DNA of 64,000 nucleotides from Camellia lanceoleosa (lineage: Eukaryota; Streptophyta; Magnoliopsida; Ericales; Theaceae), in the NCBI GenBank assembly GCA_025200525.1, contig CM045763.1, forward strand, positions 150,728,246-150,792,245, read 5' to 3'. The notes beneath the pieces are model-generated. The model was not told where the DNA came from and did no database searches. It worked only from the letters and a program-made list of their open reading frames with translations. Below are positions 16,271 through 47,975 of the stretch, one piece after another. Numbering within the stretch: the stretch's first letter is position 1; each line of letters opens with the position of its first letter. The translations under genes were made by a program, and so were the position numbers.

Positions 16271-16605
16271 GTTTCTGTACAGATCCAACATTTTCATAGT
16301 ATATGCAATGAAATCTAACATTCTTTTTGTCAAAATCTTTTATTTCTTTCAAATGCTTGGCCATTTGTGTTATTCTCATGAATCTGACAATGAATCTTAA
16401 ACATGACTGAGAGAATAAAACAAAATTACAACCCAAAAATGTTGTACATACAACCTAACATGACTCTAACATTGGTGCTAGAATGCCTCCATTGTCTCTT
16501 AAACGTCATGTGTCGTGCTTGAATGAACCAATTGAATTGCCATACTTGATGAAGACATGCTAGTGTGCCAGTTGAACCATCTTCGAATTTAATGCTGTTG
16601 TGTTA
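16271..16605. other. Spacer between PMD tail and DUF7745 copy B
   Basis: No gene is seen. In E3 the equivalent interval (34,060-34,560) also separates the two antisense genes. The sequence is T-rich at the left and likely 3'-UTR-like. Confidence 0.4.
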
Positions 16606-16613
16606 ATGTCATT

Positions 16614-25884: not shown

Positions 25885-26148
25885 CGAGTACTTCACCAAT
25901 TAGTGTACTATAGATGACATTGCCCTCACTTGATGCAACCATGGTCTCTCCAATAGCAAGTTGAACGTTGTTGGGACGTTCATGATGTGGAATTCAACTT
26001 CATGCTCAGATGGGCCAACCATTATCTGCACCTTAATGGTTCCCATGGCTTCCCTACTAGTATTATCGTAGGCTCTAATCAATTGACTAGTGGATGTAAA
26101 ATCTACAAGTTTTAGTCCGATCGCGTAAGTAGTGTGAGAAAGGCATAC
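25885..26148 (-). pseudogene. pol: Protease C-terminal half, cut by E3 (E2)
   Basis: The block reads MIRAYDNTSREAMGTIKVQI, then EVEFHIMNVPTTFNLLLERP and WLHQVRAMSSIVH, the same downstream retropepsin block as in E1 and E3. The Gly of the LLLGRP motif has become Glu. The last five bases, 26,144-26,148 (CATAC), are the target-site duplication. The catalytic half lies at 47,976-48,240. Confidence 0.85.
26144..26148. repeat. Target-site duplication, left copy (CATAC) of E3
   Basis: CATAC directly abuts the LTR start TGTAGCTTGC and recurs at 47,971-47,975 directly after the other LTR end. Five bases is the normal Ty3 duplication length. Confidence 0.9.
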
Positions 26149-29100
26149 TGTAGCTTGCTTTTCGTGCTCTTTTTGGATACGACTAGCCCTACAGTTCGGA
26201 CTCCCGTGGTTCTGAATCTAATTTCACAAATGCAATATGAAACAGTGAAAACACAAAAAGAGTCCAAATCCGGCAATTCTTTTGAAAAATCAATGTTTGA
26301 ATCAAATGCCAAAAATGGACTACTTTACCAGATTACAAAGTCGCCACCTAAATATTTTTGGAAAATTTAGGAAACCAGAGACTCGTGTCAAAGGCCAATA
26401 GTCCGTCATCACCAAAGTATCTCGGCTCGGCAACTTAGGTACGAGAGGGAAAGGTAATGAATTGAGCACTCCACTCGTCCGATTAAAGATCAGCCTCTAC
26501 TAATCATGATGTAATTTTTATTTACATTATATGCTCTTGTTCCGGTTATTAGGCTAACATTACTATGTGACGCACACAAGTATAGACTAATTTGCAAAAG
26601 TTGGAAAGCTTTGATTTCATGTTTATTTTGAAAATTGTTTTTGATACTTGTCACTTAAAAAGGTGAGTTTGTACATTAATCAATTTGTCTCAGTTTAAAC
26701 AATTAGCCTTCATCCACCAGCATTCAAACAGGTATATCAATTAAGAAATTAGCCTCATGGAAATATGCTTGATATGGCAACACAAACATTCGATGCAAGA
26801 TGCTAAAACTCAAAATTTCTCACCTAGTACTCCGAGCAGAAACAAAGCGAAATAATTAAAAAATATGCATGCTCGTAACTAATGCGATATGACTAAATGC
26901 AACGCACACATTATGTAATACTTAGGTTCGGCTATGAATATGGCATACGATTCCACTCAAGACATGTGATGAATCATGTATTCAAGCAATGAATTTAAAC
27001 ATTTGGTTAGTATGACGAGCCGAACCTTGGATGCATGCAAGACAATGGATGCAAAGCATAAAGATGCTAATTTAAAATAAAAAAAATGTTCTATACTAAC
27101 CATCGTAAGAAAATAAGTAAAAGGGAGAAAGACGTGGGATTGGAAAACATACAACTTATTACATGTTGGACCTCACACAAGAGGGTCCGAATCAGTGTCC
27201 GAAAGTCCGAATTCAACTAATTATTACAAAGCCAAGTGAATGAATAAATAACTAACTAGCTAATTTATTACAACAAAATAAGCTAACTATCGAACAAATC
27301 ATTGCTACAACAATATTAATTATGATGATGAAAATTATAACAATATTGAAATCATTAATTTACAATTTACAATGGAAGCATAAGGATCGCATACTCGTAG
27401 CGATTTCAGAAGTAACTTTGTCTACCTTGCTTAGAATCTGTCTTGTTTCACCTTCAGTCACTGCCCTCTGCTTCTGCAAAACACACTGCCCTACCAAACA
27501 TTGATGGTTGGCCGGGCCCAAATAAGGCCGGCTGTGCCTTAATTTTATACAAAATCCTATTTTTGTGCTCTGAAGTGAAAACAGTGCAGACAAAGTTATT
27601 CTGAACTCTGTTTGTCCCTTCTACTCTTCTCTCTCATAGTAAGCCTCAAGAGAAGAACAAAGTTATTTCCAAAACCATCAATGAGCAAATTGATTGCTTG
27701 ATGAGTTAGGGCATGATTTTGGACAAAAATTAATGAATGCAATGAATCAATAACCACCCCTCCCTCATATCATGAAGTAAGCTCAAAGAGAGAGGTAGGA
27801 ACGCTTCAACGCTCATCAAAACATCATGAATTGATGTAAGACAACCCTTGACACAATAAACTCAGCATAACGTCTGGCCAAATCCAAGCAATATAACTCA
27901 TTTTCTTTATGTGGGTTAGTTCATTTTAGCAATTTTTAGACCTTTCCATTCTTTAGTCCATTATGTCCAAGGTGATGATTACGTCCACTAAAGATTGCTT
28001 CCACTAAATGAGAAGCATGTCAAGCGGAAAGTGATTCTCAACATGAAAAAGAGACCATGCCGTTGACAATGAACCTCCGTAGAGATTAAGCCATTAAGCA
28101 TAGATCTCTAGTTCATGTTTTGAACAACCATCAACCGGTTGAAACAACTCTCAAATGAAAGAAATGGATGATAGGTTGATTATTAAAATGAGGCTCTTAA
28201 CAAGGAAATTAAACAAAGAAAGGCCAAGAAGAACATATAACAAACTATATATGTGAACATATGAGACAACAAGCAAACTAATCAAAGCATGAATTAATTA
28301 AACAACCTTGGACAGCCCTAAAATAGCCCTTAATGGGTGAAAAATAGTGGCTCAAAGTGCATGAAAAGTGCCCAAAAAGCTAAACAACAAAGAAAGAAAA
28401 TAAGGCTAGTAAGCAAGAACAAGGAGGGGTGGCTAACTCCTCCACTTTTGAAACCTCAAAGCATGATTTTAGCCTTTTTTAAACTCTAAAAATCAATTTA
28501 GAAAACAACGTAAAGGGTGTAAAAACAAAGGTTTGAGCTATAGGTGAAGGTTCAAGAAAGAGCGGTAACTCTCTCTACCCTTTGGTTGCTATCCAAACCC
28601 AAGCTTAGACACTTGAAAGAGGATCAAAACAATACAAAAAAACAAAAACTAGATCGCAAGAGATAGCAAAGAGAGCAAGAGAAGAGATAGTAACCGTATA
28701 CCTCTCAAGAAAGGTAAGCTCTTTGTTTGTGAATCAAACTTGGTCCAAACACACTCTAAAGCTTGAATTGTGCTGCACAAGGCTCAACCAAGGTTCCAAG
28801 GCTAAGGTGTAAAGGTGTATATGGTGTATGGATATAGGTTAAAGGTGGTCAGCTTGCTCAAAGGTTGCTTGCACAAGAAGATGGAGCTCTCAAGAAGGTG
28901 TATAAGCTTTTTAGAATTTGTTCAACCCTCAAAACAAAAATACAACTTCATTTTTATAGAATTTGAGCAAAAGAGGTCATAAATATCTTCAAAAATAGAC
29001 AGCTAGTGGGCTCCTGCCCAGAACAGTGTTTCTCGCTACCAAGGCACGGCCGGGCCTCAATGTGATCCCCTGTCTCTCTGCTTCAGACTTAGTATAGGGT

Positions 29101-29287
29101 GGCAAAATTTGTAAAAATGGATTTCTGAGGTACATATAGTGGGAATATGGAAGGTTTGGGATTGTTTCGGAGCTTAAACATAGCCCCCTCGTTAAGACCT
29201 CAAACTACACACAACACCACTTTCATCATCGAGTGTACCGGGCAAAGCGCTCAAACCTTGCGGACAATCAAAAATGGGGTGTCTACA
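26149..29287 (-). mobile_element. 3' LTR of E3
   Basis: The plus strand runs TGTAGCTTGC to GGTGTCTACA. Transcription orientation is minus (start at 29,287). The inner side abuts a polypurine tract. Relative to the 5' LTR it lacks about 40 bp next to the CGGCCGGGCCTCAAT motif near 29,046. A TATAAAAA box lies on the minus strand near 28,951-28,958. Confidence 0.93.
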
Positions 29288-29303
29288 GTTGCCCCTCTTT
29301 GAT
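29288..29303 (-). other. Polypurine tract of E3
   Basis: The minus strand reads ATCAAAGAGGGGCAAC right before TGTAGACACC. E7 has the related TCAAAAAAAGGCAAC at the same place. It primes plus-strand DNA. Confidence 0.85.
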
Positions 29304-29744
29304 AGAACTCGAAGTGATAAAGTGACATGAGTGAATGTCAAAGCTCAGAGACGACCCATTTGACGAGGCCCCAAGGCTTGGGCAAGAAATCAAGACATAA
29401 ATGCAAAGCTTGAACTCAAGGGCAAAATGCAAAAACGAAATGCAACAAATCACATATGATCATGCAATGAAACAACGCAGTGAAACACTTGAATGCAAAT
29501 AACAAGTGACGAAACAACGCCACAAGAAAAACAAGAATGTAACAATGAACGAAACCGTAAATCAGAGCAAAAAAAATCCTACCGTGTGTCACATGGAAAA
29601 AAGTGAATAAACGGATATGTCACACGTGGAAACGACAAAGAAAACACAAACCAAACTACATCTCATATAGAAAGGATGTGAGAAAATGCAGACCTAACTA
29701 CACTTCGCGTCGGAAGGGTGAAGGGCGACGTAACCATCGAGCAC
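29304..29744 (-). other. 3' UTR of E3 next to the PPT
   Basis: No gene is seen. The stretch nearest the PPT (CTTTGACATTCACTCA on the minus strand near 29,325-29,345) aligns with 59,038-59,055 of E7, so this terminal UTR is conserved between the two Tat subfamilies. Confidence 0.6.
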
Positions 29745-30365
29745 ACCCGAGGTTTTCAACTAAGATCCTAACACATTTCACGCGATAAAAGGGAGGGTGG
29801 TGTGAACAAACAGGCACACCTAACATTTTTAATCAAAGCAGACAATCCTTATGCGTTGCATGCGAGATGAGGAAAGGTGGTGTGAACAAACAGGCGCACT
29901 TGTTGTTTTTAATCGAGTGAAACAATCCTAACGCATCATACGCGAGAGGAGGAAAGGTGGTGTGAATAAACAGGCGCACCTGTTTGTTTTTAACCGAGGT
30001 AAACAATCCTAACGCATCGCACGTGAGAGGAGGAAAGGTGGTGTGAACAAACAGGCGCACCTGCTATTTTTAACCTAGTGAAACAATCTTAACGCGTTAC
30101 ACGCGAGAGGAGGAAAGGTGGTGTGAACAAACAAGCGCACCTGTTTATTTTTAACCGAGGTAAACAATCCTAGCGCATCACACGGGAGAAGAGGAAAGGT
30201 GGTGTGAACAAGCAGGCGCACCTGTTTGTTTTTAACCAAGGAAAAGAATCCTAACATGTCACATATGAGAGGGGGAAAGGTGGTGTGAACAAACAAGTGC
30301 ACCTAGTTTTTTTTTAATCGAGGAAAACAGTCCTAATACGTCGCACACGAGAGGAGGAAAGATGG
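29745..30365. repeat. 80/81-bp minisatellite in the E3 3' UTR
   Basis: The phrase GGTGGTGTGAACAAACAGG or a close variant recurs at 29,796, 29,876, 29,956, 30,037, 30,117, 30,198 and 30,279, with a decayed eighth unit near 30,355. Each unit adds a CGCACCTG-T-rich segment and an AACAATCCTAACGC segment. Units are nearly identical. Minus-strand 75-residue frames here are shadows of an 81-bp period divisible by three. Confidence 0.95.
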
Positions 30366-31160
30366 ATCATCAAAAAAACAAACAAATTTTCAAAATTTGG
30401 TAAAGCGAAACTATCTCCCCCCCCTTCCCCCAGGAAGGCCTCAGAAAATGCAGTCCATAGAGATAATTCAAATCAAGACACAACGCATAAATGTGAATTA
30501 GAAGTAAACACGGATTCTACACAGAGACACGTAAAATCAAAACAATCAAAGTGATGTAGTAAAGTGAAAGCCAATTTGCCCATGTGTTGAAAATGGGCTT
30601 TCGAATATGACACACCACGTTCCAATTTGATGGTAAAATGGATGATGATTTTACTGTGGCACGAATGATTTTATATGGAACTCCTCTGAATGAACCATAC
30701 ATACAATATCGTGTGTTACGAAATAACGGAACAAATTATAGCAATATATCATGAAGTCATGCAATAGAACAAAACAGAATGGACAAATTCCTTTCTTTTT
30801 CATTTCCTTCTCTTTTATATTTTTGCTTCTATTCCCTTCTTTCTTTATTTTGATTTTTTCTTTCTTTTTTTTTTTTTTTTTTATATGTTTGTTGTTTTTT
30901 TTTCTTTTTCTTTTTCACTGTTTTTTATTTGCTTTTGTTTATTTTTCAAATTAAAACTCCATAATACAAGAAATAAAGTAAAAAAAAAAAAAAACTGACT
31001 AAATTCACACTGAGAGTCGGTCGAGCCTTAATGAAGCACGACTGGGCTTCAATAAAGCCGGCCGGGCCTCGATAGCAGCAAGGGCAATTCAGGAAAGCCA
31101 CGACCCATGGCTGTTTAAAACACATTTTAACCCCCATTTCACACACATCCTAGGTCGAAA
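30366..31160. other. Upstream region of the antisense PMD gene (E3)
   Basis: It holds pyrimidine-rich runs at 30,780-30,950 (including about 22 consecutive T near 30,869), an A-run near 30,980, and at 31,017-31,075 three direct repeats of about 20-22 bp. These read roughly GGTCGAGCCTTAAT, ACTGGGCTTCAATAAAG and CCGGGCCTCGATAG. The last unit contains GGCCGGGCCTC, also present in the E3 LTRs. No coding frame. It is the probable promoter or 5' flank of the PMD gene. Confidence 0.5.

Positions 31161-31204
<44 letters not shown>
31161..31204. repeat. (CT)n microsatellite in the putative PMD 5' UTR
   Basis: About 20 CT dinucleotides lie some 290 bases before the PMD ATG, followed by a C/T-rich leader. 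CT-rich 5' UTRs and GAGA-type promoters are common in plant genes. Confidence 0.9.
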
Positions 31205-31207
<3 letters not shown>

Positions 31208-31493
31208 AGGCTTCTCCTCTCTCTAGATTTTCACTCCCCTTAAGTTACCCAACAACCCTTGCAATTTTTTCCTTGAAACCTTTCCCTCCTCTACACTTTG
31301 AACCGAACAAATCTAATATGGCAAAGTTTTGAGGTTTCTCTTGTTTTCTCTCACATTTGCCCACACCTTTCTTGATTCCCCCTTTGATTTTCCGCCTCCT
31401 CTTTACTTTCTCTCCTAGGGTTTGGATTTTGGGGTTTTTACCCATTTTCACTCATCCCCTCAATTTTTCCTCACTTTTTTTCACTTTCTCTCG

Positions 31494-33698
31494 ATGGCTA
31501 ATGACGAGGTTCCCATCTCGGACCCTGCCATTAGTATTGGGCCGTCTTGGGTGCGGATATAGAGGCCAAGGATGTTCTCGTGTTGCCTCCTCTCATTAAT
31601 AGGCCATTCGATGCGGCCACTTACTGACCACATCCAAATGCTCCATCTCCAGGCAGTATTTTGAGATTTGAGGGCCTCATCCCAGGGATAGATGAAGACA
31701 TCCTGCTGCAAGAGCCCACGGAGCACTTGTCTGCCGATGCCTGCACGGTAAGAAACTTTCCCTTTGTTTTATACATATGTTGAATCTCATAAGCAAACCA
31801 CTCATTAATGCTACATACACTCCCCATTTACAGGTGATATCTAAGAGGATTGACAACTATGGATCCATATCCGGCCCTCGGTGTTGGTATGAGAGGCTGC
31901 CCGCAGAGGTCCGCACACTGGTTGATGCTGCCGACTTTGGGCCTTTTTGTTCAGGGCTAATACAGATGAGGGGTAATATAGATGAGGGCTAAATCGCTGC
32001 TACACAGGGCCTTGGTAGAGAGATGGTGGGACACTACAGACTCGTTTCACTTCTCATTGATCAGGGAGCTAACTCTGACCCCGTACGATTTCTCGATGCT
32101 CACTGGCCTGCAGGTCAGGGTTAGTGGCTCGATCCCATGTGATCCTGATATAACGCAGTGGAGAGCCACACAACGTTAGCTCCTCGAGGCGGTCCCAGAC
32201 ACCACAAGTCACGGGATGGTAAGGTATAGTTGGTTCTTGGATCACTTCTCCGATTTTCAACCGCTACTCCAGATGAGGGCACCCAGTACACCCGCGACTT
32301 CCTTATGTATCTCTTCGGTACTACCTTGTTTGCGAACATGGAGAATACCGTAGGATAATATCTTATAGGGGAACTGGTGCACCTACCACAGGTGACAGAG
32401 TATGACTAGGGTGGAGTCGGCCAAGCCAACTTGTGCTGGTATATGAGCTCTGTATCCCACCACAAGGCAAATTCACGGGGTGGCTACTGGAGAGTTTGGG
32501 AGGTACACCTCACACTTACTTTTTCTGTGCAGCTTTATATTCTGTTCAATTTTGCATTTCCTGCTCATCTTTGTTTTGCATTTCTTGTTTATCTGCTCAT
32601 TTACTTCATTCATCTTTTTCTGTTTACAACTATGAGTTTACACATATTTCACCTTTCTGGCTTCGGTCCCGATGAGGCCGATTGAGTTATCAGTACCCCG
32701 CTCCCAATACTACAACTCTCGATTCGAGCGACGTCATCGCGTAAACCGAGACTTCCCTTACTTTTGTAGTTTCTTTGACACCATCACCACGAATCAGGTA
32801 ACAAAATACTAGTCTTTACATTTCCATACTGCACTGTTATTCTCATACTGTTGTTTCTTATACCATTGTTTCCATACTACTTAGATCCTTGACATCTGAC
32901 ATCTCCTTCCACAAGTTGACTGGCACCCCTAGGCGGGTATCTCTCAGGCAACGAGGGTGACCTACGTTGCTGCGTGGCATGCCTCTACCATGCAGATTTT
33001 GTTTGAGGGCCCCTTCGACAGGGCATATTACCTGGGGGAGAGGTTCATCCACCAGACATGAGGGGTAGCGGATCCGAACATTCCACATCCTCCTCATCCC
33101 AGTATGAGAGTAGTAGATGATCTTCACGACAGTCCTTAGATCGACTTCTTGATGTTAGGAGAGGATGGTGACCAACATCATGAGCCCGGTGACTTCACTA
33201 CTTTCTTGCAGACTCGGGTGATTGCCCTTCTTACCCATAGTGTAGCTCGTGCTATTCCAGAGGTTGTTGCTGCTATTGCTAGAGGCGCTCCCACTGTTGC
33301 TCCGCTCCCGGGTTTCCTATGATTCCAACTGAGGTTGTATACATGTGGCTAAATGGGGTGATTGAGCAGATCCCCCTTGAGCACATTAAGGAGATGGATT
33401 GTAGATTGGTGATGGCTCCTGGTGTCGAGCAAGTACATACTTCTTCCTGTTTCTGCCCATTGTGTTACTTTATGTTTTCACTACCCTCTATTATTTCTGT
33501 CCACTATTTTCAAATCCTCTTCACTTTTGCAAGTAGCCGCGACATATGCTGATGACCTTCTCCAGACGATTGGCCGACTGTTTCTGATGGTGCGGAAGAG
33601 ATAGACTATTCTGGCCACTATGGGATTAAGGGATGCTTTTGCCCCTAGTTTATAGTCAAGACAGTCTTACTCATAACTTTATTGGCCTCTTCTGATAC

Positions 33699-33746
<48 letters not shown>

Positions 33747-34060
33747 GCTTGAGCCAGCACCAGTTGCACCTACAGGACCTCCTCCAGCTAAGAGACGAAG
33801 ACGAGGACTAGTGAGGAGCAAAGGAGGAGCTGACCGGGGGAGAGGCAGAGTGAGGTAGCACTCACCTCCTGAGGAGTCCTTCGAGGAGTACATGACTTTT
33901 GAGGGGAAGGGGAAGGCGGTTGACATGCAGTCTAGCAGCCCCAGTGATGACAACAATGCACCTTCTCTGTAGCCGAGGAGGAAGAGAGAGAGGATGGGTT
34001 ACTGATGACAATGATGATTTTCTGTTTTTGTTTTTGTTTTTCTTTGTAGTTAAAGACTAG
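31494..34060 (+). pseudogene. Plant-mobile-domain (MAIN/PP7L-like, PF10536) gene antisense to E3
   Basis: ATG at 31,494 (MANDEVPISDPAISIGPSWV); a frameshift near 31,560 leads into PPLINRPFDAATY and PSPGSILRFEGLIPGIDEDI. Donor GT at 31,748, acceptor AG at 31,832-31,833. Exon 2 (31,834-32,502) carries the PMD core: YGSISGPRCWYERLPAEVRT, LVERWWDTTDSFHFSLIREL and LTPYDFSMLTGLQV. Exon 3 (about 32,637-32,797) has MRPIELSVPRSQYYNSRFER. Exon 4 (about 32,890-33,432) has ATRVTYVAAWHASTMQILFE and GPFDRAYYLGERFIHQ. Further exons: ATYADDLLQTIGRLFLMV (33,534 on) and a Pro-rich, basic tail PPPAKRRRRGLVRSKGG (33,780 on), a likely nuclear signal. Scattered stops make it a pseudogene in this copy. PMD proteins in Arabidopsis act in TE silencing; a role here is inference. 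Confidence 0.85.
33704..33745. repeat. (CT)n microsatellite before the last PMD exon
   Basis: Twenty or so CT repeats end at TAG just before the Pro-rich exon, so they double as the polypyrimidine tract of the last intron. Confidence 0.85.
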
Positions 34061-34561
34061 CTTCAGATAGACCCTTTTGTTTTGAGGATTTTCTTTTGTT
34101 TTGCTGCTTTATAAAATGATGATCGGGGTTGGACCTACTAGTTATAAAAGACAAATTTTTGAATGATCTCCTTGTACAATATGTGATGAATGGCATAACC
34201 TTTGTATGGTAACTTTGCACAAGACTTAAAACAACGAATATCTACTCTTGTATTCATTCTTGAGTCGGATAGCAGCCCACAACCGGACAAAATGTAAAAT
34301 ACAACTCGATAACTAGAAAACAGGATGAAAACAAATTGAAAATACTAAAAAACATTTGGTACAAACAAAACAAGGCTTAAAACACAACCGTGGTACGATA
34401 AGACAAAGGCCAGCCTTTTCTAAAATTGCACTGATCTGGGCCGTCATTTAGACCCCGACCAGGCCCAAATAGGCATGATTGGGCTTAAAAATGAGGTCAG
34501 TCAGTGCTGTCCAGTTATTTTTTTTGGCAGAATAGCAAGTCTTTGGTATTTTGCTCTTAAG
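34061..34561. other. Spacer between PMD and DUF7745 genes (E3)
   Basis: No reading frame is supported. Near 34,438-34,490 are GACCAGGCCCAAATAGGC and ATTGGGCTTAAA, relatives of the GGCCGGGCC motif found in the LTRs and before the PMD gene. Probably the 3' UTR of PMD and the promoter of DUF7745. Confidence 0.45.
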
Positions 34562-35850
34562 ATGGAGACATTGTTCAACAATAGGCTCTGGGACTAGGTA
34601 GCCACTTTGGACGGCTCGAAAAATGTGAACTTTCGCGGTTTCGGCCTAAACGCCCTTTTTCCTCTGAGCCTCACTTCTCTTTGCTTTCGATTCCTCTATG
34701 CCGCTGTTCAATGTTGGAACCCGATCACACATGTGTTTCGCTTTGGATCACAGGAGATGTGTCCGACGATCGAAGAATTTCAAGCATTAATAGAATCCCG
34801 GCGCGATGAAGAAATCACGCTGTAGCCCCGTTTTGGCCATGCCCAAGCTTTTGGATGAATGTGTGGGCTAACATTACACGAGGCTTGGTCCTTGGCACAT
34901 GATGGGGTGCTAGACATCCCCAGCTTAGTTCATCGATTTTTCGCTATTGGAGATAGGAGTGACCTTCTCTGGCGAGGCCACAAACAACATGCTCTTTGTT
35001 TATGCCTTCTTGCACAATTCCTCCTTGCCCCTAGTTTTGGCAGAGCTAGCATCCGGTTGATAGAAGTGGCCTAATATCTGAAAAAGGGTAAAAGTTGCAT
35101 GGGTTTGGCACTGGCGGAAGCCTTGAAGGGTTTGGATGCTTTTCGTTGGGGAGAGACTACCCGGTTGGTAGGGAGTCCACTACTTCTCCAAGTATTATTT
35201 CCCACCCTACTAATTTATAATTCTCACATCACTTGGCACTCAATCTCTGTTTTTCTCTCAAAACCTCTTCCTTACTTTTCCCTCATCGTACACCTCTCTA
35301 TTCTTTATTCTCTCTTATTTTTCATTCCTTCCTAAGTATGGTTAATGGATAAGCTGCAAGTAGTGAACCCTTGCCCCAAGTACTCGGCCAGAGCTTACTT
35401 CTTTAGCCAATGGCTAATCGATTTCCCCTCAGAGGGGTTATGGTGTAATTGGATGTGCAGCAAATCCGCAGCTGGCATAACTTGGCTTGTCCCTGGCTTA
35501 ATTTGGTTGAGATGAGCTACAACACACTATGTGTTATATTTCCCCTTTCGGTTCAGACTCCAATTTGGCCATGATCAGACACGTAGACACGTCCAGAAGA
35601 GAAGGTGGAATACCCGGCTTTATTTCCCATTCACAGTTCACATTTGCCTAGATACCTTACTGCTTGGAGGGTGAGGGAGCTTCAGGCCCCTACCCCTAGC
35701 TTCAGTTACGCCCTTTCGAAGGAGTGCTTAGCTTGGCTCGAAAACGAAGAACAATTGGGCCATCTTTAGCCATGGAAACTTCTGGGAGTGTAAGCAGGAG
35801 ACATAGAGCTACCTGACTTAGTTGTGCCCCTAGTTTTACTGCTTTTATTT
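34562..35850 (+). pseudogene. DUF7745-like gene, copy C (antisense gene of E3)
   Basis: ATG at 34,562 starts METLFNNRLWD, then a stop, then TLDGSKNVNFRGFGLNALFP, FLYAAVQCWNPITHVFRFGS and EMCPTIEEFQALIESRR, the family's N-terminal signature. Downstream: KQHALCLCLLAQFLLAP, a stop, and LALAEALKGLDAFRWGETTR with LVGSPLLLQ. Donor GT is at 35,192. The acceptor expected at 35,335 reads CCTAA instead of CCTAG in copy A. Exon 2 gives WLMDKLQVVNPCPKYSARAY and FPSEGLWCNWM. Later frames are broken. It is the fullest of the three copies. DUF7745 resembles a distant PMD relative (PTIEEFQALI against LTPYDFSMLTGL); its biochemical role is unknown. Confidence 0.8.
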
Positions 35851-36480
35851 TTCTTTTCAAGTTTTATGATGTAAAAGTAGCTTTGTTAAATCAAAGAGTT
35901 GGAGAATGTACTTGTGTTGAAATCAATGAAATTAAAGTTTCGAGTACTGAAAATTTTCCTTTCAGTCCCCAAAATGGTCCAAGTTGTAAAAGGGTAAAAT
36001 TTTGAGAAAAATCAGCTTTTATTAAAACTTTTCAAAACTGGTTTTTGGGAAACGGTCACCAACTGACATGCATAGAATCAACCCTCAAGATGTACAGCCC
36101 TGAATCAACAAATCATAACTGCCCCTGACTACATACCACTACTACTCTGCATTGTTAACTAGCTTTTCTTCCCAAAATGAAGATCACAACCGAACTAATA
36201 GATGACAAATAGAGATGACGTGATCAGCAAAACGGACAGGACAATTAAGTTAGAGATAGCTACGGGTGAACTTTAGAATGAGGTTGCCTACGTATCCCAA
36301 AGAGGGGAATCAGGCCTTACGTAGTTCGATTCAGGTTCATTCGAGTATTAACTCTCTCCTTTTGCACTCTAACTCCAAAGTTTCCCTTTAGGGTTTTCAA
36401 CCTTGCGAGCTCAGTTTTTCTTTATTTCTAATTTTCCATGCTCTAACTTTTTCCTAGGTCGCCCTTTCGAGTTTTATGCC
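35851..36480. other. Convergent untranslated block between DUF7745 and integrase (E3)
   Basis: No gene is seen. It is shared with E1 (3,791-4,436) and E6 (17,541-18,036). The 3' ends of the sense pol and the antisense DUF7745 gene meet here, so termination signals for both strands would have to lie inside it. Confidence 0.55.
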
Positions 36481-36483
36481 TAG

Positions 36484-37700
36484 TGAGCCTCTCAAGGGTA
36501 ATATTTCTTCAACTTGTCCATATTAATTGGCTGTGAGAATTCTAGACCATCTAGATCCATAAGTATAACTGCTCCCCTAGACCAGATAGATTTGATGATA
36601 TAAGGACCTATCCAATTAGGTTTAAACTTACCCCTAGGGTCATAGATGGCAGCCCAGTTGTCCTTCAGCACCATGTCCCATTTTTTAAGGTTTCTGGACT
36701 TAATTTTCTTGTTAAAAGCCTTGGCAATTCAGCATTGGTAACCCTGGACATGATACAAAGCCTTCAACCTTCTCTCATCAAACAATATTAATTCCTTAAA
36801 CCTGTTCTCCTGCCAGTCCGCCTATCTGACAGTCAACCATAACTCATAGCGACGGTACTTCAATTTCGATTGGTAGAATAGCCTCAATCCCATAGACGAG
36901 AGAATAAGGGGTCGTCCCTATAAATGTTTGGATTGAGGTTCTGTAACCCAAGAGCGCAAATGGCAATTTATCTGGCCAGTCCCTGTAGGTTTCCACCATC
37001 TTTCCCAAAATTCTCTTGATGTTTTTGTTCATGGCCTTGACAACTCCATTGGTCTGTGGCTTGTATGCTGAAGACTTGTGGAAAGCCACGTTATATTTCT
37101 CAAGCAGATCTAGTACCTCTTTCTTGAAGTGCAAGCCATTATCTGAAATGATCTCATTCGGGACTCTATACTGACAGATGATATTATCCTTGATGAACTT
37201 AGCCACATGTGACGCCTTTAGCACAGAGTAGGATTGGGCCTCCTCCCATTTGGTGAAGTAGTCGATCGCTACCAAGATGAATTCATGTCCATTTGACCCC
37301 TTTGGCATAACTGTGCCGATAACATCTATCCCCCAAACAGAGAATGGCCATGGTAAAGTCATGTTGTAGAGCTTCAATGGCAGAATGTTCATGCGATTGG
37401 CATGAATCTGGCATTTGTGGCAGAGCCAAATAAAACTAATACAATCCTCTTCCATGGTTGACCAGTAGTAGCCTTGTCTAAGGATTTTTTCAAGCCAACA
37501 TTACACCGTTTATGTGGGCTCCGCATTCTCCCCTATGAATGGCCTCCATAAGACATTTTGTTTCTTCTTCTTGAACACACAGTTTATGCATTCTCAAATG
37601 GCCTCTTTTGTACAACTTGCCTCTGCAGAAGATAAATTGGACAGCCAGACGCCGTATTTCCCTTTTATCCGTGGTGTTTGCCCCTGGCGGATACACCTCC
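36484..37700 (-). pseudogene. pol: Integrase, nearly continuous but catalytically altered (E3)
   Basis: The zinc-binding part runs from about 37,640 (RGHLRMHKLCVQEEETKCLM) to CHKCQIHANRMN near 37,390-37,430. The 203-residue frame 37,455-36,844 holds the core: VWGIDVIGTV and EIISDNGLHFKKEVLDLLEK supply both catalytic aspartates. The expected Glu after TNGVV is Lys (AAG at 37,036-37,038). The C-terminus reads WIGPYIIKSIWSRGAV and QPINMDKLKKYYP (near 36,492). A stop near 37,490 and another near 36,843 interrupt it. The Glu-to-Lys change should abolish strand transfer. Confidence 0.9.
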
Positions 37701-38690
37701 TTTTCCAAGAAATTCCAAATATTATAGTACCAAGGGTTCTTGTCTAAAGCCTCATCTATCACGGCAATAGTTTCATAGGCCGGCGTGTACTTCTGTCCAA
37801 TAATGATCGGACACATCCTAACTTCCAATGGAATGTCTACCATAGAAGGTAGAGTTGCTAGTGCATTAGCAAACCAATTGTTCTCTCTTAGCAGATGGGT
37901 AAACGTTAGCTTTTCAAACCTCAGAATTAACATATCCAAGGCCTGATGGTAAACCTTCATTTTCTCATCTTTAACCTGCCAATCTCCATTGGCTTGAGAC
38001 ACAACCAAGTTCGAATCCCCGATGACGTCCAACCTTTTTCCCCCTAGTTCTAGGGCAACTTCTAAACCAGCAATACACACCTCATACTCTGCTTCGTTGT
38101 TTGATACTTTGAACTAGAGTTTGAAGGCTAAGGGTATATAGGAGTCATCGGGTGCTATCAGCAACATAACTATCCCATAACCGTATTGATTGGCTGCTCC
38201 GTCAAAGTACATCGTCCATGTTTTCTCCTCTATTTGAAAAATATCTTCATCTAGGAAAAAGTACTCCACTGCTTCATCACTCTCTACTGGGTGATCTGCT
38301 AGGAATTCCACTACAGCCCTCCCTTTAACCGACTTACGTGTAACATATTTGAGATCAAATTCAGAGAAGAGGAGCAACCAACGAGCTAGCCTACTCGTAA
38401 GCGCTGGTTTCTCAAAAACATATTTGATGGAATCTAATCTCGAAACCATAATTACCGAGTGAGCTAACAAGTAGTGCCTTAACTTTCAGGTAGCCAATAC
38501 CAAGGCTAAGAAAGCTTTCTCGAGAGGAGTGTAACGAGTATTGTAGTCCAATATTTTCTTGCTCAAGTAGTAAACGGCTTTCTCCACCTTGGCCTCCGAC
38601 TCCTGAGCCAACATACACCCCATGGTTGAATTTGTCACTGACAGGTACAAAATCAACGATTTTCCCGATTCTGGCAGTGATAACACAGGC
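37701..38690 (-). pseudogene. pol: Dual RNase H region (E3)
   Basis: The Ty3-type RNase H occupies about 38,690-38,280 (SLILYLSVTNSTMGCMLAQE, VYYLSKKILDYNTRYTPLEK, FLADHPVESDEAVEYFF). The archaeal-type RNase H follows at about 38,210-37,750 (MYFDGAANQYGYGIVMLLIA, CIAGLEVALELGGKRLDVIG, DSNLVVSQANGDWQVKDEKM). One TAG near 38,115 and a frame break near 38,487 are the main lesions. The second RNase H is the Tat hallmark. Confidence 0.9.
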
Positions 38691-39540
38691 AGATTCTGTA
38701 GGTACTGCTTGACCTATTCAAAAGCCAATTGACAGCGATCATCCCATTAGAATTTCTTTCCTTTCATCAAGAGACCAAATAATGGTTCACAAGTCAAGGT
38801 TAGTTTTGAAATAAACCACCTTATGAATTGCACTTTATCCAGAAAACCGCACACCTCCTTTTCAGTCCTTGGCGGTGGCATTTCTAAGATGGCCTTGATT
38901 TTGGAAGGATCTAACTCAATTCCTCTCTGTGTGATCAGGAATCCCAGCATTTTTCTTGTTGTTACGCCGAAGGTGCATTTTTGCGGGTTCAACCTCAATC
39001 TATATTCTTTGATCCTTTGAAAAAATTTCTTCAGGGCAATGTAGTGGCCCTCTTGATCTTTGGACTTGACAATCATGTCGTCCACATACACCTCAACCTC
39101 TTTATGGATCATGTCGTGCATAATGGTGGTTACATCCCTTTGATAAGTGGCCCCAGCATTCTTCAACCCAAACGGCATGACTCAGTAGTAGTAGGTGCCC
39201 CACGGAGTAGTGAAAGCGGTCTTCTCCTTATCCTCAAGTGCCATCAGAATCTGGTTATACCCGGAAAACGCATCCATGAATGACAACAGTGAGTGGCCGG
39301 CGCTGAAGTCTACCAACTCGTTAATATGCGGCAGTGGAAAATCATCCTTCAAACTAGCCTTATTCAAATCCCTAAAGTTGACGCAGACCCTGTTTCTTCC
39401 ATCCTTCTTCGAAACTGGAACAATATTGGCCAACCATGTTAGATACTTAGATACAAGCAAGAACCCTGCCTCAATCTGTTTGGTAACTTCTTCCTTAATC
39501 TTCAAAGCCTAATCTGGGTGGACTCTGCGTAGCTTCTGCT
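38691..39540 (-). pseudogene. pol: Reverse transcriptase (E3)
   Basis: The frames at 39,505-39,182 and 39,178-38,747 are contiguous apart from a TGA at 39,179-39,181. Fingers: WLANIVPVSKKDGRNRVCVN and FRDLNKASLKDDFPLPHINE. Palm: MDAFSGYNQILMALEDKEKT, MPFGLKNAGATYQRDVTTIM, and an intact VEVYVDDMIVKSKD with YVDD codons at 39,076-39,087. Thumb: MLGFLITQRGIELDPSKIKA. This is the best-preserved RT in the window and the best sequence for placing the family. Confidence 0.92.
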
Positions 39541-40590
39541 TAACTGGTCGGGCCTCAGGGTCAAGAGGGATCCGATGCTGTACAATCTCAGGATCGATTC
39601 CAGGCATGTCTTCGTAGGACTACGCGAAAACATCTTTGAAATCTTTTAATGAAGCAATTAAACGCTCGCGTTCCTCCGAAGACAACGTGGACCCGATCTA
39701 GACCAGGTGAGCATCCTCCTCAGTACCTATGTTAATTGATACGATTTCATCTGTATAGGGCTTAACATGCCTCTCCTCCTCGTGATCAACCAAATTTTTC
39801 AAAACCCATGGAATTTCTTCCTCTTCGTTTAAGTCAAAAATTTGAAAATCAAGATCAGTACAACAAACCAAAGGCACAGAAAAATAGGCAAAGTTCACAA
39901 CATTCACATTTCAAAAGTCTGGATCCTCGGTTACAATGGACTCGAAAGAAAAGCTAAAAGACGACCTGGACAAGACTTTGGTATCCAGGTTACTACTCCT
40001 AGAAGTACCAAACTCAGAGGAACTTGAATCTGACTCCGACTCCACAGACTCAGTGGAATCAAATCTGAACTCACTATCCGATCCAGAACTACCGATGACG
40101 CCTTGCTTAAACTTCTAGACCAAGCATGGAGCCTCAGACGCATCCATGATAAAATTGGAGAAATCCCCTACTGGGTTATTCCCGATCATTGAGATGGTAA
40201 AACTATCCCCCAAGTTAACAGACTCAACTTCAGCAGTAGAACTTACCAATAGGTCAACCAGTGCTTTTCCCAACAGCTCTGCCTCTTCAATGTTTAGGCT
40301 TGCAGTCCCACCTTGATCTGTGCTAGGTCTGGTCTTCTTGTTCATCATCCTCTTCTGGTAACTAGTGTCCGAAGAAGATCTCGAACCCCGGATACCTTGT
40401 CTTTCTCTCCCAATCATACCAACACTCTGGGACAATCATACCAACACTCTGGGAATCCACAGAAAGGGAAATCTTCCCCTTGGCAAACAAAACATCTATT
40501 CAAGGTCCCCTATATTGGTTTGTGGACTAACTCGTACTGCCTCCCAGTCCTTTTTGCTTTCACCCTTCCTCGCAACTCATCTCCCTTTCT
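39541..40590 (-). pseudogene. Acidic protease-RT spacer (E3)
   Basis: The minus strand encodes a Ser/Asp/Glu-rich linker with NVVNFAYFSVPLVCCTDLDF and DLNEEEEIPWVLKNLVDHEE (39,907-39,760), preceded by LDASEAPCLV and RTRPSTDQGG segments. It links protease to RT in the polyprotein and is conserved in position in E1, E2 and E6. No fold is recognised. A 25-bp direct duplication (CAATCATACCAACACTCTGG type) occurs near 40,414-40,450. Confidence 0.55.
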
Positions 40591-41440
40591 TTGTCAATCT
40601 GTAGCGGTAGGTTTGTATCCCAACCCGAAAGTGTGGTTACTGTGACTTATCTCCTTAGCTACAGTACCTCCCTGCCTACCACTTCTGCCCAATCCTAATC
40701 TAGGAATATGCCCTTGTTTGTTCATCATGCAGATAGATTGCGCACTCACGTAATTCCTATCGTCCTCCGCCATGATGGATTGGACCAATCAGGCTTCTGC
40801 CAAAGAGAAGCCAGAAAGGAACACGTCCTCATCCCCATATATAATTTCCAATAATGGCGTAGTGGTTCCTTGGGGAGGATGGATCGTAAAATTACCGTAC
40901 ACAGTGGCAATCCTGCCTTTGAAGGGGTACTTCACTAACTGATGGATTGTTGATGATACAGCCCTCATCTGATGTAGCCAGGGCCTTCCCAGCAGTAGAT
41001 TAAAAGTGGCCGGAACGTCCATGACATGAAATTCCACCTCATGCTTGGATGAGCCGATTAGGATATGGCTCTTAAACGTTCCTATAACATCTCGACTTGA
41101 ATTGTCATCGGCCCGAACGGCCTGGGTCGTGGGCGTAAAGTCGACCGACCTCAAACTGATGGCATAGGCAGTCCTCACTGGACATACATTGATCACCGAT
41201 CTGGTATCTACTAACACCACCAGAATCCACTTTTTCTAACTTTCCAGGGTTACATATAAGGCCGGTTGTGGTTGGCACCCTCAAGTGGTAACTCCTTATC
41301 TGTAAAAGATATCACTAGCAAAATGTCCCCAGATGTAACCAACGATACCAATTAGTTAGCAGTGGTGTCGATAGGCAATTTGGTTCGGTTTATTGCCTCT
41401 AACAGTGCTTGCCTATGCTCCCGAGAAGCCATTAACGACC
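40591..41440 (-). pseudogene. pol: Aspartic protease, catalytic Gly lost (E3)
   Basis: The frame at 41,220-40,789 begins MVLVDTRSVINVCPVRTAYA and continues with DVIGTFKSHILIGSSKHEVE, FHVMDVPATFNLLLGRPWLH and a C-terminal FTIHPPQGTTTPLLEIIY. The active-site triplet DTG reads DTR (AGA at 41,200-41,202). Upstream, 41,430-41,230, is the conserved MASREHRQALLEAI leader with frame breaks. A neighbouring segment near 40,600-40,790 has AEDDRNYVSAQSICMMNKQG. Confidence 0.88.
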
Positions 41441-42300
41441 CCCAGATTGATATATCTGCCTAAATCTTCTTGAGCTGTTTCAAGACCAGGTTTTCTTCAA
41501 CATCCTTCTCTTTTGCTTTTTCAGCCTCCTTTCTAGAGGTCACTGGCTGATCTAATGCTGTGGGTTTGAAGTACTAACCACTCTGGGTCATATGATTGAT
41601 CTCGTCAGTATACCAGGTGTCATCCGGGATATCAGCTTTTCACCCTTTGTCAGTGTACGCATGACTTAGGTCGCTATCTTCCCACCACTCTCCTGCAGTC
41701 ATGGCCAAGCTAGCATCAGGTTCTATCTGGAGCATGTTAACATCATGCGCCCCTCATCATATCATTCTTCCTCCACTATAGTCTTGGTTTCTGAATCCTG
41801 ATATTTTCTAAGCTTCCTCAACATCTTTTTCCAGTCGATGGGCTCCCATTTGACCTTTTTGGTAGTTTGGACATCACCCACTGCTATCTCAGGTTCTTCT
41901 TTCTCTTTTCCTTTTCCCTGCTCTAAAGCTATCTTTGTTTGGATCTCTTCTATCATTTCCCTTTGAAATTGTTCTAGTGCCTATTCTTTCTCAGTCAGAA
42001 ATGCAGCCTCAGCCTTGTCACTAGCACCAATTTCCTCTTCCTTCCCAGTCTCTCCCATCTGTTCCTTTACATCTGACTCTTCTTCACTCAACCATCCATT
42101 GCTTGTTTCCGGCTGGCTTGGATCCCACCATCCCAGTTTTACACTGCTTGTATCCTTTTCTTCAAAGAAGTAAAGGTTGTCTAAATCCTCTTCCAGCTCG
42201 GCCAGGTCTTCTTCCAGTTCAGCCAAGTCATTTAGGCCCTGTTCCGACCAATCATTCTGATTCTACCCTAACTGGCTCTCCTCAATAGCATTAATGCTGG
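41441..42300 (-). pseudogene. Charged Gag-Pro linker (E3)
   Basis: It consists of long Glu/Lys-rich minus-strand segments: AELEEDLAELEEDLDNLYFF (42,223), LGWWDPSQPETSNGWLSEEE, VKEQMGETGKEEEIGASDKA, and IALEQGKGKEKEEPEIAVGD (41,930). E1 and E2 carry the same arrangement including the WWDDxDL motif (here near 41,680-41,700). Probably a disordered Gag C-terminal extension. Confidence 0.65.
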
Positions 42301-43760
42301 GAAAGTCCGGCAAGATGACTACTGGCTTTGGCTCATCGACGACCACAATGTATAAACTAGGATCATACTCCTCTGCAAGCGAGACCCCTTCTCTATAACA
42401 CGGGCATCAGACGACCCTGTCTTCAGTACATTCTTCTCTTTCTTTGTTTCTACTGCCACGGGCTTGGATTGGGTTTGTGGTGTTAGATCCATCATGCACA
42501 TGTATGTACCTTCTGGAATAACCACCTCCGGTTTTGATAGGTGGATGAGGTAATGTATGTACTAGGGTTGAAGGTAGGTGGTAGTGTATGGATGTGGTTA
42601 ATGTTTCTGGTAGGGGAATTTGGTTATGTGTAGGAAATGGGTTGGTTGTTATGTTTGGTTTAGTAGGTGGGGTGATGACTTTGTTGTTGATGAGATCTTG
42701 GATCTCATGACGTAAACGGTAGCACAGGTCCGTGGGATGGCCATGTTGTTGGTAGAAGATGCAATACTGGGTAGGGTCATGTTTGGGTGGCAATGGGTCC
42801 AGAAGTGGACGAGGATCGAGAGGCTTGAAATGTCCCTTTTCCATTAATAGTTTGAGGGCACGGGTTGGGCTCATATGGAGGTGAGTAAAAACTCTTCGGT
42901 TCCGGGGTGGGCCAGTGTTTTGTGAAGGTTGTAAAGTTATGGCAGTAGCAAAAGGATCAGCCATCTTGGCCGTTCAAACAACAGTACTGACATCCGCAGG
43001 CCGTGGAATAGTGTTATTACTAGCATTGGTATTCTGAGAGAATGGCCTTCTAGCAGGTTCACTTGTTTTGTGAATGATACCTTTTTTGAATGCATTGTCA
43101 ATCTAGACCCCCAACTCATGCAAAGAAGCAAAGGTGGATAACGATGCCACTATCATCCTCTACAGCATATCTAGTTCAAGATTCTGGACCACCAGCCGAA
43201 CTTGTTCTCTTTCAGCAGGTCTGTTTGTCATTCGGGCTGCCTTGGCTTGCCACCGGGTGACAAAATCGATGAATGATTCTTTGGGGTTCTAGGTAGTAGC
43301 TTCCAGCTCACTTATGGTTACCTCTATCTAGGTGCTATATGAATGCTGGTTGACAAATGTCTCAGATAGCTCCTCCCAATTCCGCTTTGTATAGTCCTCC
43401 AACTTAGCGTACTAGATGGCCGCCACATCAGACACGATTCTCCCAAATAACAAGAGCTTTTGCGCCCGAGACAAACCCATGGGCCTCAAAACGTCTGAAA
43501 ACAACCGGACATGCACAATCGAATCCCCACTTCCATCGAATCTATCAATGTAGGGCATCTTAAATTTCTCTAATAATCTGACCGAAGCCTCAGTGTATCC
43601 GTCTTCGATATCCAAAATGGAGTTGAAGCCCTGGGATTTCTTCAATGCTTTCTCCAATCTAGCAATCTTGACCAAGGCCGAATCAATTTCATTGATATCA
43701 AAAGGAAAGATTCCTGCAGGGGATTGAACTGAAGGCCTATAAGCCGGAGCTGGGGGAAAT
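42301..43760 (-). pseudogene. gag: Gag (E3), Tat type with CCHC-like zinc knuckle
   Basis: In order on the minus strand: VKIARLEKALKKSQGFNSIL and RLLEKFKMPYIDRFDGSGDS (43,675-43,530), FSDVLRPMGLSRAQKLLLFG, then the Retrotrans_gag core with WQAKAARMTNRPAE (near 43,230), then LHMSPTRALKLLMEKGHFKP (near 42,860), the zinc knuckle CIFYQQHGHPTDLC near 42,740, and a Pro/Thr-rich tail. Stops interrupt it near 43,411, 43,290 and 43,105. Gag coats the genomic RNA. It is the un-inverted arrangement, in contrast to E1. Confidence 0.88.
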
Positions 43761-44821
43761 ATTTCCTAAAGATCTATGATTTAGGGATTTTCTACTAGTA
43801 GGGGTAGATCCGGGTTTGGCTAAGCAGCCAGGATCGGATGCACGGTTGATGCGAATGCCCCAGATGTACGTCATAGATCGATAATAATTTCATCTTGTAC
43901 AACCATCCTTTGGTTTACAGTATCCATGGTTCTCTGCGTTCTGTATTGTATTCTGTGCCATTGCTGGTCTGGGTGAACTAGATGCTGGTGAACTGGTTGA
44001 ATGAGAACAGATAGGCATTTGCAGAGTGTTTTGTACTGGTGCTGCTAACTATCTGTTCATTCTTTGTCGAGTAACTGACGGAAGTGAGACTAACACTTGC
44101 TGACCACCAATAAGGTCTTGAGCTTTGCAAAGCCTGTCAAAACGAGTCCACACAACTTGGGAAATGTCGGGTCTTTCTAAAGCTATGATGGTAAACTACT
44201 TAGCAAAAGAAAATAAAAACCATCGATCAAAATCGGACGGCACATTGGCCCCAATTTACAACAGTTATAACACACAGCTAAACTACAATCCCTATTGAAC
44301 TCTATTCTTAAACTCATTCTGATATGAACTATCCTGTACAGTCTCACTATAAAAGCACATACTAAGTAAAAGAACCAAAACACCACTATGAGGGGGGTAA
44401 AGTTACCCTATCCTAGATTTTTGGCGTGATCTAGGCTGCACTATTTCAAACAACAAGTTTCACAGCATCCTGTCCTAAGTTGGAACAGTCACTATAGCTT
44501 TACTATATGCAACTAGGTCAAATGGTCGAAAGGGTGCCTCACCAAGATTACCTAATATACCTCTCACACCTAACTCCGAAAATTAAAAAGAGGATTAAAC
44601 GATACAATGGTAATCTAGATCCAAGGGTTGTGTTTCCATCATGACAGAGCCCATGACCGGTCAACATTTTGGCAAGCCTTTTGAGCAAGCCTCCAGCAAA
44701 CCATCCAGGCATAGTAAATGGAAAACACAATGACTTAAAGTAACTATGAAAATACAATGCAAAGAACATATAAGTGTAGATAAAATTTCACATCATGAGT
44801 TTCAAGTCAAATTCTCTAAAT
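43761..44821 (-). other. 5' leader and Gag N-terminal region of E3
   Basis: Weak Gag-like N-terminal frames extend to about 44,140 (the minus strand encodes a PKLCGLVLTGFAKL-like block matching PQILWTRAGRLYKTS of E1). From about 44,180 to the PBS I see only leader sequence, which shares the GTTACCCTATCCTAG phrase (44,402) with the E1 and E2 leaders. The length of about 0.65 kb fits the long leaders of this clade. Confidence 0.55.
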
Positions 44822-44841
44822 CCCCAGTAGAGTCGCCAGAA
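44822..44841 (-). other. Primer-binding site of E3
   Basis: The minus strand reads TCTGGCGACTCTACTGGGGA, beginning two bases after the LTR end. This is the TGGCGACTCTxCTGGGGA site used by plant Tat/Ogre elements. I did not verify which tRNA (tRNA-Arg is the usual report) it pairs with. Confidence 0.8.
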
Positions 44842-44843
44842 AC

Positions 44844-47800: not shown

Positions 47801-47970
47801 TGGATTTCTGAGGTACAAACTGTGGGAATATGGAACGTTTGGGATTATTTCGGAGCTTAAACATAGCCCTTTCGTTGAGACCTCGAACTACGCACAACAC
47901 CACTTTCATCATCGAGTGTACCAGGCAAAGCGCTCGAGCCTTGCGGGCAGTCAAAAATGGGGTGTCTACA
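44844..47970 (-). mobile_element. 5' LTR of E3
   Basis: The plus strand runs TGTAACTTGC to GGTGTCTACA, abutting the PBS on the left and the CATAC duplication on the right. It aligns with 26,149-29,287 over its whole length, with an extra segment of about 40 bp near 47,686-47,730 that includes GGCTGGCCCCCAATGAGG. It should drive genomic RNA leftward. Confidence 0.93.
47593..47600 (-). promoter_or_regulatory. Putative TATA box of the E3 5' LTR
   Basis: The minus strand reads TATAAAAAC about 375 bases inside the LTR start. The 3' LTR has the same box near 28,951-28,958. This would place the RNA start near 47,565. Confidence 0.5.
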
Positions 47971-47975
47971 CATAC
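47971..47975. repeat. Target-site duplication, right copy (CATAC) of E3
   Basis: It is identical to 26,144-26,148 and followed by ATTAATAG, the continuation of the interrupted E2 protease sequence. Confidence 0.9.

What the first reader, a model, noticed from the sequence alone, without database searches (positions are those of the whole stretch)
31494..35850. Two PMD-type genes carried antisense inside one giant Tat retrotransposon
E3, delimited by LTRs and a CATAC duplication, contains a MAIN/PP7L-like PMD gene and a DUF7745-like gene on the strand opposite to gag-pol, between integrase and the 3' LTR. Antisense extra ORFs at this site are known in the Tat clade, and PMD domains are known to move with transposons. 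A paired PMD plus DUF7745 cassette with introns is not something I recall as a described system. Arabidopsis PMD proteins (MAIN, MAIL1) and PP7L act in TE silencing and genome stability, so a viral-accessory-like role against host silencing is a testable inference. This copy is decayed.
Basis: partly seen in the sequence, partly recalled or inferred. Interest (0 to 1): 0.88.

Follow-up and report, generated by a model that had tools for sequence, protein, structure and literature searches.

The report
Antisense accessory gene pair in plant retrotransposon
A large retrotransposon in a Camellia genome carries, back-to-front behind its integrase, two intron-bearing genes (a plant mobile domain protein and a DUF7745 protein); this copy is decayed, but comparison with other copies indicates that natural selection kept both proteins working while the elements spread, so they probably help the element, perhaps by acting on host gene silencing.

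Summary
Confirmed and extended. E3 (26149-47970) is a 21.8-kb Tat element with 3.1-kb LTRs and CATAC duplications, nested in another Tat element. Behind integrase, on the opposite strand, lie remnants of a PMD gene (ATG 31494) and a DUF7745 gene (34562-about 35769), both broken by stops and frameshifts. They are not peculiar to this copy: each DNA search scored 40 places, its cap, and 14 of 40 DUF7745 places (E3 included) have a listed PMD place 1.2-1.9 kb upstream on the same strand. A subfamily at about 67% DNA identity has the pair in one of two copies examined. Both frames evolved under purifying selection: between subfamilies dN/dS is 0.09-0.16 for DUF7745 (16 of 48 pairs, the rest saturated) and 0.15-0.26 for PMD. 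DUF7745 is possibly a distant PMD relative (weak evidence). PMD genes in Gypsy elements and antisense ORFs in Tat elements are published; I found no account of a paired, intron-bearing PMD+DUF7745 module. An anti-silencing role is plausible and untested. New variant of a known kind.

The parts
26149..47970 (-). E3, whole nested Tat (Ty3/gypsy) element; gag-pol reads on the minus strand
   Evidence: TSD CATAC on both sides and the empty-site homologue near 9086
26149..29287 (-). 3' LTR (element orientation)
   Evidence: 92.4% identical to the other LTR, gaps left out
44844..47970 (-). 5' LTR (element orientation)
26144..26148 (.). target-site duplication CATAC, left
47971..47975 (.). target-site duplication CATAC, right
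29765..30365 (.). tandem array, unit about 80 bp, between 3' LTR and the PMD gene
31494..33980 (+). PMD gene remnant, antisense to gag-pol; ATG 31494, about five exons (31494-~31745, ~31834-32526, ~32627-32791, ~32905-~33440, ~33740-~33980), broken by stops and frameshifts; the last exon, seen by eye only, holds a lysine/arginine-rich run
   Evidence: exon limits approximate, by comparison with relatives
34562..35769 (+). DUF7745 (PF24924) gene remnant, antisense to gag-pol; two exons, at least four in-frame stops and one frameshift
35187..35335 (+). DUF7745 intron, read on the antisense strand; no excess of change at the third column
   Evidence: E3's own acceptor column is changed
36490..37500 (-). 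integrase; its end faces the DUF7745 end (convergent, about 0.7 kb apart)
   Evidence: rve, Integrase_H2C2 in 36844-37500, both under the curated cut-off; extension to ~36490 read by eye
37490..38113 (-). additional RNase H (RVT_3) between RNase H and integrase
   Evidence: E 2.1e-17
38114..38485 (-). RNase H (RT_RNaseH) remnant
   Evidence: E 2.2e-5
38747..39508 (-). reverse transcriptase
2627..3652 (+). second DUF7745 remnant, antisense to the pol of a neighbouring Tat element (E1)
16593..17332 (+). third DUF7745 remnant, antisense to another Tat pol

Best explanation
E3 is a dead copy of a Camellia Tat retrotransposon lineage in which many elements carried two accessory genes antisense to gag-pol, a PMD gene followed by a DUF7745 gene. 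SHOWN: the pair is multi-copy, in one order and strand wherever I saw it, and both reading frames were held by purifying selection while subfamilies diverged. SUGGESTED: DUF7745 is a distant relative of PMD. INFERRED: the genes have their own promoter and are spliced from antisense RNA; because their introns are not introns on the genomic (sense) RNA, they survive reverse transcription, which is how multi-exon genes can persist here. INFERRED: the two proteins work in the nucleus as element-encoded chromatin or transcription factors of the MAIN/MAIL kind, and raise the element's success by weakening or redirecting host silencing.
For: Copies: 40 scored places each, E3 among them, for DUF7745 (78-85% DNA identity to E3) and PMD (76-84%); 40 is the cap. 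Pairing: 14 of 40 DUF7745 places (E3 included) have a listed PMD place upstream within 5 kb, same strand and order; 3 more at 6-8 kb; no reversed pair within 15 kb. Of 4 DUF7745 places whose upstream DNA was fetched without knowing of a PMD, 3 have it (L040, L041, C70) and 1 does not (C12). PMD and DUF7745 distances of 8 copies correlate, r 0.91, p 0.002. Selection: DUF7745 exon 1, E3 family against L032 family, dN/dS 0.09-0.16 in the 16 of 48 pairs with computable dS; within the L032 family 0.08-0.27 in 15 of 15 pairs; PMD exon 2 against C70 0.15-0.26 in 8 of 8. Frame control: the gene frame has the lowest pN/pS (0.28 DUF7745, 0.48 PMD) and 4.2-4.8 stop codons per pair, against 12-20 in the other five frames. 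RT between E3 and E1 gives 0.07. Kinship: PF10536 matches 4 of 7 DUF7745 proteins at E 1.1e-5 to 1.6e-4, in 3 of them over the stretch that PF24924 matches.
Against: No transcript, protein or localisation evidence. Purifying selection does not say which function. dS between subfamilies is 1.7 or more, near saturation, so the ratios are rough. In the frame control minus-strand frame 2, which shares the wobble columns, also has lowish pN/pS (0.39 and 0.60), but with 12-14 stops. DUF7745 exon 2 (57 codons) shows a weaker codon pattern. Within the E3 family dN/dS is 0.21-0.90 for DUF7745 and 0.26-0.62 for PMD, as decay after insertion would give. Kinship is weak: all PF10536 matches to DUF7745 are under the Pfam cut-off; hhalign probability 5.7 and 1.3; a Camellia PMD profile puts only 2 of 6 DUF7745 proteins above the best of 1200 shuffled sequences (9.1 and 6.4 against 6.0 bits). 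The PMD model folded at mean pLDDT 39.8, useless. DUF7745 is seen without PMD in two window elements and in C12. 20 fetched PMD places of other families have no DUF7745 protein match in 9.4 kb; one, L020, has a 64-bp DNA match.
Confidence: 0.5

Rival explanations
1. The two proteins serve the element's own life cycle (particle assembly, nuclear entry of the pre-integration complex, choice of integration site) and do not touch host silencing.
For: Same selection data. Nuclear localisation of an antisense ORF product of Grande and an accessory-protein role are discussed in PMC7264820 (passages). The PMD end carries a basic run (by eye).
Against: The studied PMD proteins act in silencing and transcription of host genes (PMC5418596, PMC7156037, passages). 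No interaction with gag or integrase has been tested.
Confidence: 0.3
2. The antisense transcription itself matters: it makes double-stranded RNA and 21-nt siRNAs that limit the element, the proteins being incidental.
For: 175 PHAS loci at PMD genes in Camellia sinensis var. assamica, whose phasiRNAs target PMD transcripts (PMC10673657, passages). Suggested for antisense ORFs in general in PMC7264820 (passages).
Against: Codon-level purifying selection that fits one frame of one strand best points to a protein function.
Confidence: 0.12
3. Passive hitch-hiking of a captured gene fragment.
For: This copy is broken in both genes, and divergence within the E3 family can be close to neutral (up to 0.90).
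Against: Low dN/dS between subfamilies, one order and strand in 14 of 40 places, a second subfamily at about 67% identity.
Confidence: 0.03
4. A recent capture of host MAIN/MAIL genes.
For: Databases name some of these proteins MAINTENANCE OF MERISTEMS or MAIN-LIKE 2.
Against: In the tree the E3-family copies group with C70 and two Rhododendron proteins and are separated by long branches from L001-L005 (the tool warns of long branches).
Confidence: 0.05

Closest known systems
PMD-bearing Ty3/gypsy elements (Ogre lineage; PMD-A1/A2 clades)
   Same: A PMD gene inside a large Tat-type Gypsy element.
   Different: Here the PMD is multi-exon, antisense, next to integrase and paired with DUF7745. 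The published survey counted uninterrupted ORFs of at least 250 codons (PMC6317226, passages), which could miss such exons. I could not read the position and orientation of PMD in the published Ogre elements.
Antisense ORFs of Grande, RIRE2, Retand (TRP28, PF04195)
   Same: Antisense coding region between pol and 3' LTR; tandem repeats in the same interval.
   Different: Other protein family (PMD/DUF7745, not TRP28), introns, two genes, 3.1-kb LTRs instead of 0.3-1.2 kb (PMC11963269, passages).
Arabidopsis MAIN / MAIL1 with PP7L
   Same: PMD proteins that work in one pathway, perhaps as heterodimers (PMC5418596, passages).
   Different: Host genes; no DUF7745 partner known to me; not tested whether the Camellia proteins bind PP7L.
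MULE-borne PMD
   Same: PMD carried by a transposon; Ikeda et al. call an anti-silencing use tempting to speculate (PMC5418596, passages).
   Different: DNA transposon; in the published cases PMD is fused to the transposase.
VANC anti-silencing proteins of VANDAL transposons
   Same: The working model: an element-encoded protein that lifts host silencing.
   Different: DNA transposons and, as I recall, unrelated proteins (PMC5735166, PMC10398659: search listing with abstract starts only).

Membership tests
Tat clade (Ty3/gypsy) | second RNase H domain between RNase H and integrase (Ogre/Retand position) | tested here: met
   RVT_3 at 37490-38113 E 2.1e-17; RT_RNaseH at 38114-38485; rve/H2C2 at 36844-37500
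Tat clade (Ty3/gypsy) | LTRs, 5-bp TSD, large internal region | tested here: met
   LTR 3.1 kb, element 21.8 kb
Ogre rather than Retand sublineage | RT phylogeny, primer-binding site type | not tested
   LTR length fits Ogre better; no RT tree was made and the tRNA of the primer site was not checked
PMD (PF10536) | Pfam match over the curated cut-off | tested here: met
   met by relatives (L052 piece 41.4 bits, P0033 89 bits against 34.9); E3's own best piece 23.6 bits, below cut-off
DUF7745 (PF24924) | Pfam match over the curated cut-off | tested here: met
   met by relatives (L032 piece 31.8, P0001 43.2 against 26); E3's own piece 17.5, below cut-off
DUF7745 as member of the PMD superfamily | sequence or fold similarity beyond chance over the domain | tested here: inconclusive
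   for; weak; the PMD fold failed and the DUF7745 fold was never run
MAIN/MAIL (PMD-C) proteins | falls in the genic PMD-C clade | tested here: inconclusive
   E3-family copies are separate from the intact PMD genes L001-L005, but no named MAIN or MAIL reference was in the tree, so clades A/B/C could not be anchored
element-encoded anti-silencing factor | lifts host silencing | not testable with these tools
   needs plants

The most novel reading that the evidence does not exclude
The element encodes its own PMD pair: PMD and DUF7745 proteins form a two-subunit complex that imitates MAIN-MAIL1 (and its PP7L contact) and so blocks or diverts a methylation-independent silencing pathway; the genic PMD silencers would then be descendants of, or counter-adaptations to, such retrotransposon proteins. 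The antisense placement is what allowed intron-bearing accessory genes to live inside a retrotransposon.
Probability: 0.15. Interest if true: 0.85.

Novelty: new variant of a known kind. Interest (0 to 1): 0.62.

Why it matters
The ancestry of Gypsy-borne PMD relative to the genic PMD silencers is called fully open in PMC5418596 (passages). A retrotransposon lineage in which a PMD gene and a possible PMD cousin are both under protein-level selection gives natural proteins with which to ask what PMD does for an element. It also suggests how intron-bearing genes can persist in a retroelement, and that surveys of long single ORFs may have missed such genes. In public Camellia annotation some of these transposon proteins carry host-gene names, which could mislead gene-family counts.

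Tried and rejected
Rejected: passive hitch-hiking; recent capture of MAIN; one-copy curiosity. Led nowhere: 20 loci fetched around high-scoring PF10536 matches were other PMD families, without a DUF7745 protein match; two of them (L024, L025) sit beside a MULE transposase. DUF7745 by Pfam model in the genome: only 10 matches, the first look being limited. Solved-structure search with a genic PMD: 0 matches. AlphaFold of P0033: pLDDT 39.8, not used further. Bacterial-type promoter scan upstream of the PMD gene: not above chance and not meant for plants. DUF7745 is in 0 papers of the library. Literature searches on PMD with retrotransposon, Gypsy, Ogre or antisense; on MAIL1 since 2020. A 2026 review of gene capture has no mention of PMD or mobile domain (PMC13317346, term search); a review of giant transposons gave nothing on PMD (PMC6431247, passages). 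Steinbauerova et al. 2011 is not held, so its account of PMD ORF position was not seen.
Full report
What is there. The window is G000:C6:150728246-150792245 of a 3.0-Gb plant genome. Eight of its contig lengths equal the contig lengths given for Camellia lanceoleosa proteins, so the plant is almost certainly that species. E3 spans 26149-47970: LTRs of about 3.1 kb, CATAC on both sides, and the same target without E3 near window 9086, so E3 jumped into an older Tat element. LTR divergence is K2P 0.0805; with a rate of 6.5e-9 per site and year (recalled) that is about 6 million years. gag-pol reads on the minus strand with RT, RNase H, a second RNase H and integrase, the domain order of Ogre/Retand-type Tat elements (PMC6317226, section 13 read).

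The antisense genes. On the plus strand, between the 3' LTR and integrase, lie a PMD gene (ATG 31494) and a DUF7745 gene (34562-35769). E3's own pieces are under the Pfam cut-offs, but profiles made from Camellia relatives match 11 PMD pieces and 8 DUF7745 pieces of E3 in profile order, two of each set weakly. Both genes are broken by stops and frameshifts. The DUF7745 intron has a GT donor at one column in 14 of 15 aligned copies (not L051) and an AG acceptor at one column in 12 of 15 (not E3, L049, L034). Integrase and DUF7745 face each other tail to tail.

Not a one-off. Fourteen of the 40 DUF7745 places, E3 included, have a PMD place from the other list upstream at a gap of 1160-1896 bp on the same strand; three more have it 6-8 kb away; no opposite-strand pair lies within 15 kb. 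L040 shows that the capped lists miss pairs: its PMD is present but not listed. A second subfamily, about 67% identical in DNA, was examined in two copies. C70 (L052+L032) has PMD then DUF7745 on one strand, and its match to E3 runs to 36599, the end of my query, past the integrase end as read by eye. C12 (L053+L036) has DUF7745 and the stretch beside integrase, but no PMD in the 4.0 kb upstream. In the window itself DUF7745 remnants occur antisense to two further Tat pol genes, with no PMD found beside them. So DUF7745 looks the more constant partner.

Selection. In DUF7745 exon 1 the E3 family (8 copies) differs from the L032 family (6 copies) at 27-38%, 14-25% and 49-61% of first, second and third codon positions; in exon 2 (57 codons) the pattern is weaker, 21-35%, 26-37% and 42-56%; the intron shows no third-column excess. 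Nei-Gojobori dN/dS for exon 1: 0.09-0.16 in the 16 of 48 between-family pairs where dS can be computed (32 are saturated, and the 16 have dS 1.7-3.2), 0.08-0.27 in 15 of 15 pairs within the L032 family (dS 0.24-2.0), and 0.21-0.90 in 28 pairs within the E3 family, where much of the change is younger decay. PMD exon 2: 0.15-0.26 in 8 of 8 comparisons with C70 (dS 1.7-2.6), 0.26-0.62 in 28 pairs within the E3 family. E1's exon 1 aligned poorly and shows no clear pattern; it is left out of those counts. Six-frame control (E3 against six copies for DUF7745; eight copies against C70 for PMD): the gene frame has the lowest pN/pS, 0.28 and 0.48, and 4.2 and 4.8 stop codons per pair; the other frames have 12-20 stops and pN/pS of 0.39-1.76, the lowest being minus-strand frame 2 (0.39 and 0.60), which shares the wobble columns. 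RT gives 0.07 between E3 and E1, is saturated between E3 and E2, and 0.65 between E2 and E1. The two genes also share history: distance matrices of eight copies, five of which were fetched because they were paired, correlate at r 0.91, permutation p 0.002.

What the proteins are. Of the 72 database relatives of DUF7745, those for which a source names an organism are Camellia; many have no name. Of 154 relatives of the PMD (120 listed), the named ones are Camellia except three of Rhododendron molle. Four of seven DUF7745 proteins also match the PMD model at E 1.1e-5 to 1.6e-4, under the Pfam cut-off, three of them over the stretch matched by the DUF7745 model. The aligned motifs correspond by eye, but profile-profile scores are poor, shuffled controls separate only two of six proteins, and the one structure prediction failed. 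I call the kinship possible to probable, not shown. In a tree of 37 PMD rows the E3-family copies L044 and L048 fall in a supported clade (98/93) with C70 and two Rhododendron proteins, away from the five PMD genes with intact domains; the tool warns of long branches, and no named MAIN reference was included.

How it probably works. The genes are antisense to the genomic RNA, so their introns are not introns there and are copied by reverse transcription; they need their own promoter and are spliced from antisense RNA. This is inference from anatomy. Studied PMD proteins act in silencing and gene control with the phosphatase PP7L (PMC7156037, PMC5418596, passages) and through MORC1 expression (PMC9899485, outline and abstract only). 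An element that carries its own PMD and a possible PMD cousin could interfere with that pathway; Ikeda et al. speculated the like for MULE-borne PMDs. A role inside the element's own cycle is the main rival. Tea PMD loci produce phasiRNAs (PMC10673657, passages), which shows that small RNAs target such transcripts but does not choose between the models.

Novelty. Known: PMD in 57% of Ogre elements (PMC6317226), PMD in Gypsy consensuses of 10 species, 40 without a copy filter (PMC9289625, passages), antisense TRP28 ORFs in Retand (PMC11963269, passages), antisense ORFs in general (PMC7264820, passages). I found no account of DUF7745 or of the pair in the searches; most subscription papers, among them Steinbauerova et al. 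2011, were not available. The fair label is a new variant of a known kind.

Noticed in passing
2627-3652 and 16593-17332: Two more DUF7745 remnants on the plus strand, each antisense to a different Tat pol; no PMD found with them.
   Followed up: partly
35187-35335: The DUF7745 intron differs by only 18-22% between E3 and six L032-family copies, against 53-59% at third codon positions of exon 1, which asks for an additional constraint.
   Followed up: no
L024:5177-6371, L025:6378-7501: Another PMD family of this genome lies convergent to a MULE transposase with a FAR1/AFT-like domain, a PMD-MULE association in a eudicot.
   Followed up: partly
P0033, P0036, P0053 and others (database proteins): Transposon-type PMD proteins of Camellia are named MAINTENANCE OF MERISTEMS or MAIN-LIKE 2 in public annotation.
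   Followed up: no
29765-30365: Array of about 80-bp tandem repeats between the 3' LTR and the PMD gene; arrays in this interval are described for Retand elements (PMC11963269, passages).
   Followed up: no
51529-53857: Plus-strand protease/RT/integrase-like ORFs of a different Gypsy element (by eye from ORF translations).
   Followed up: no
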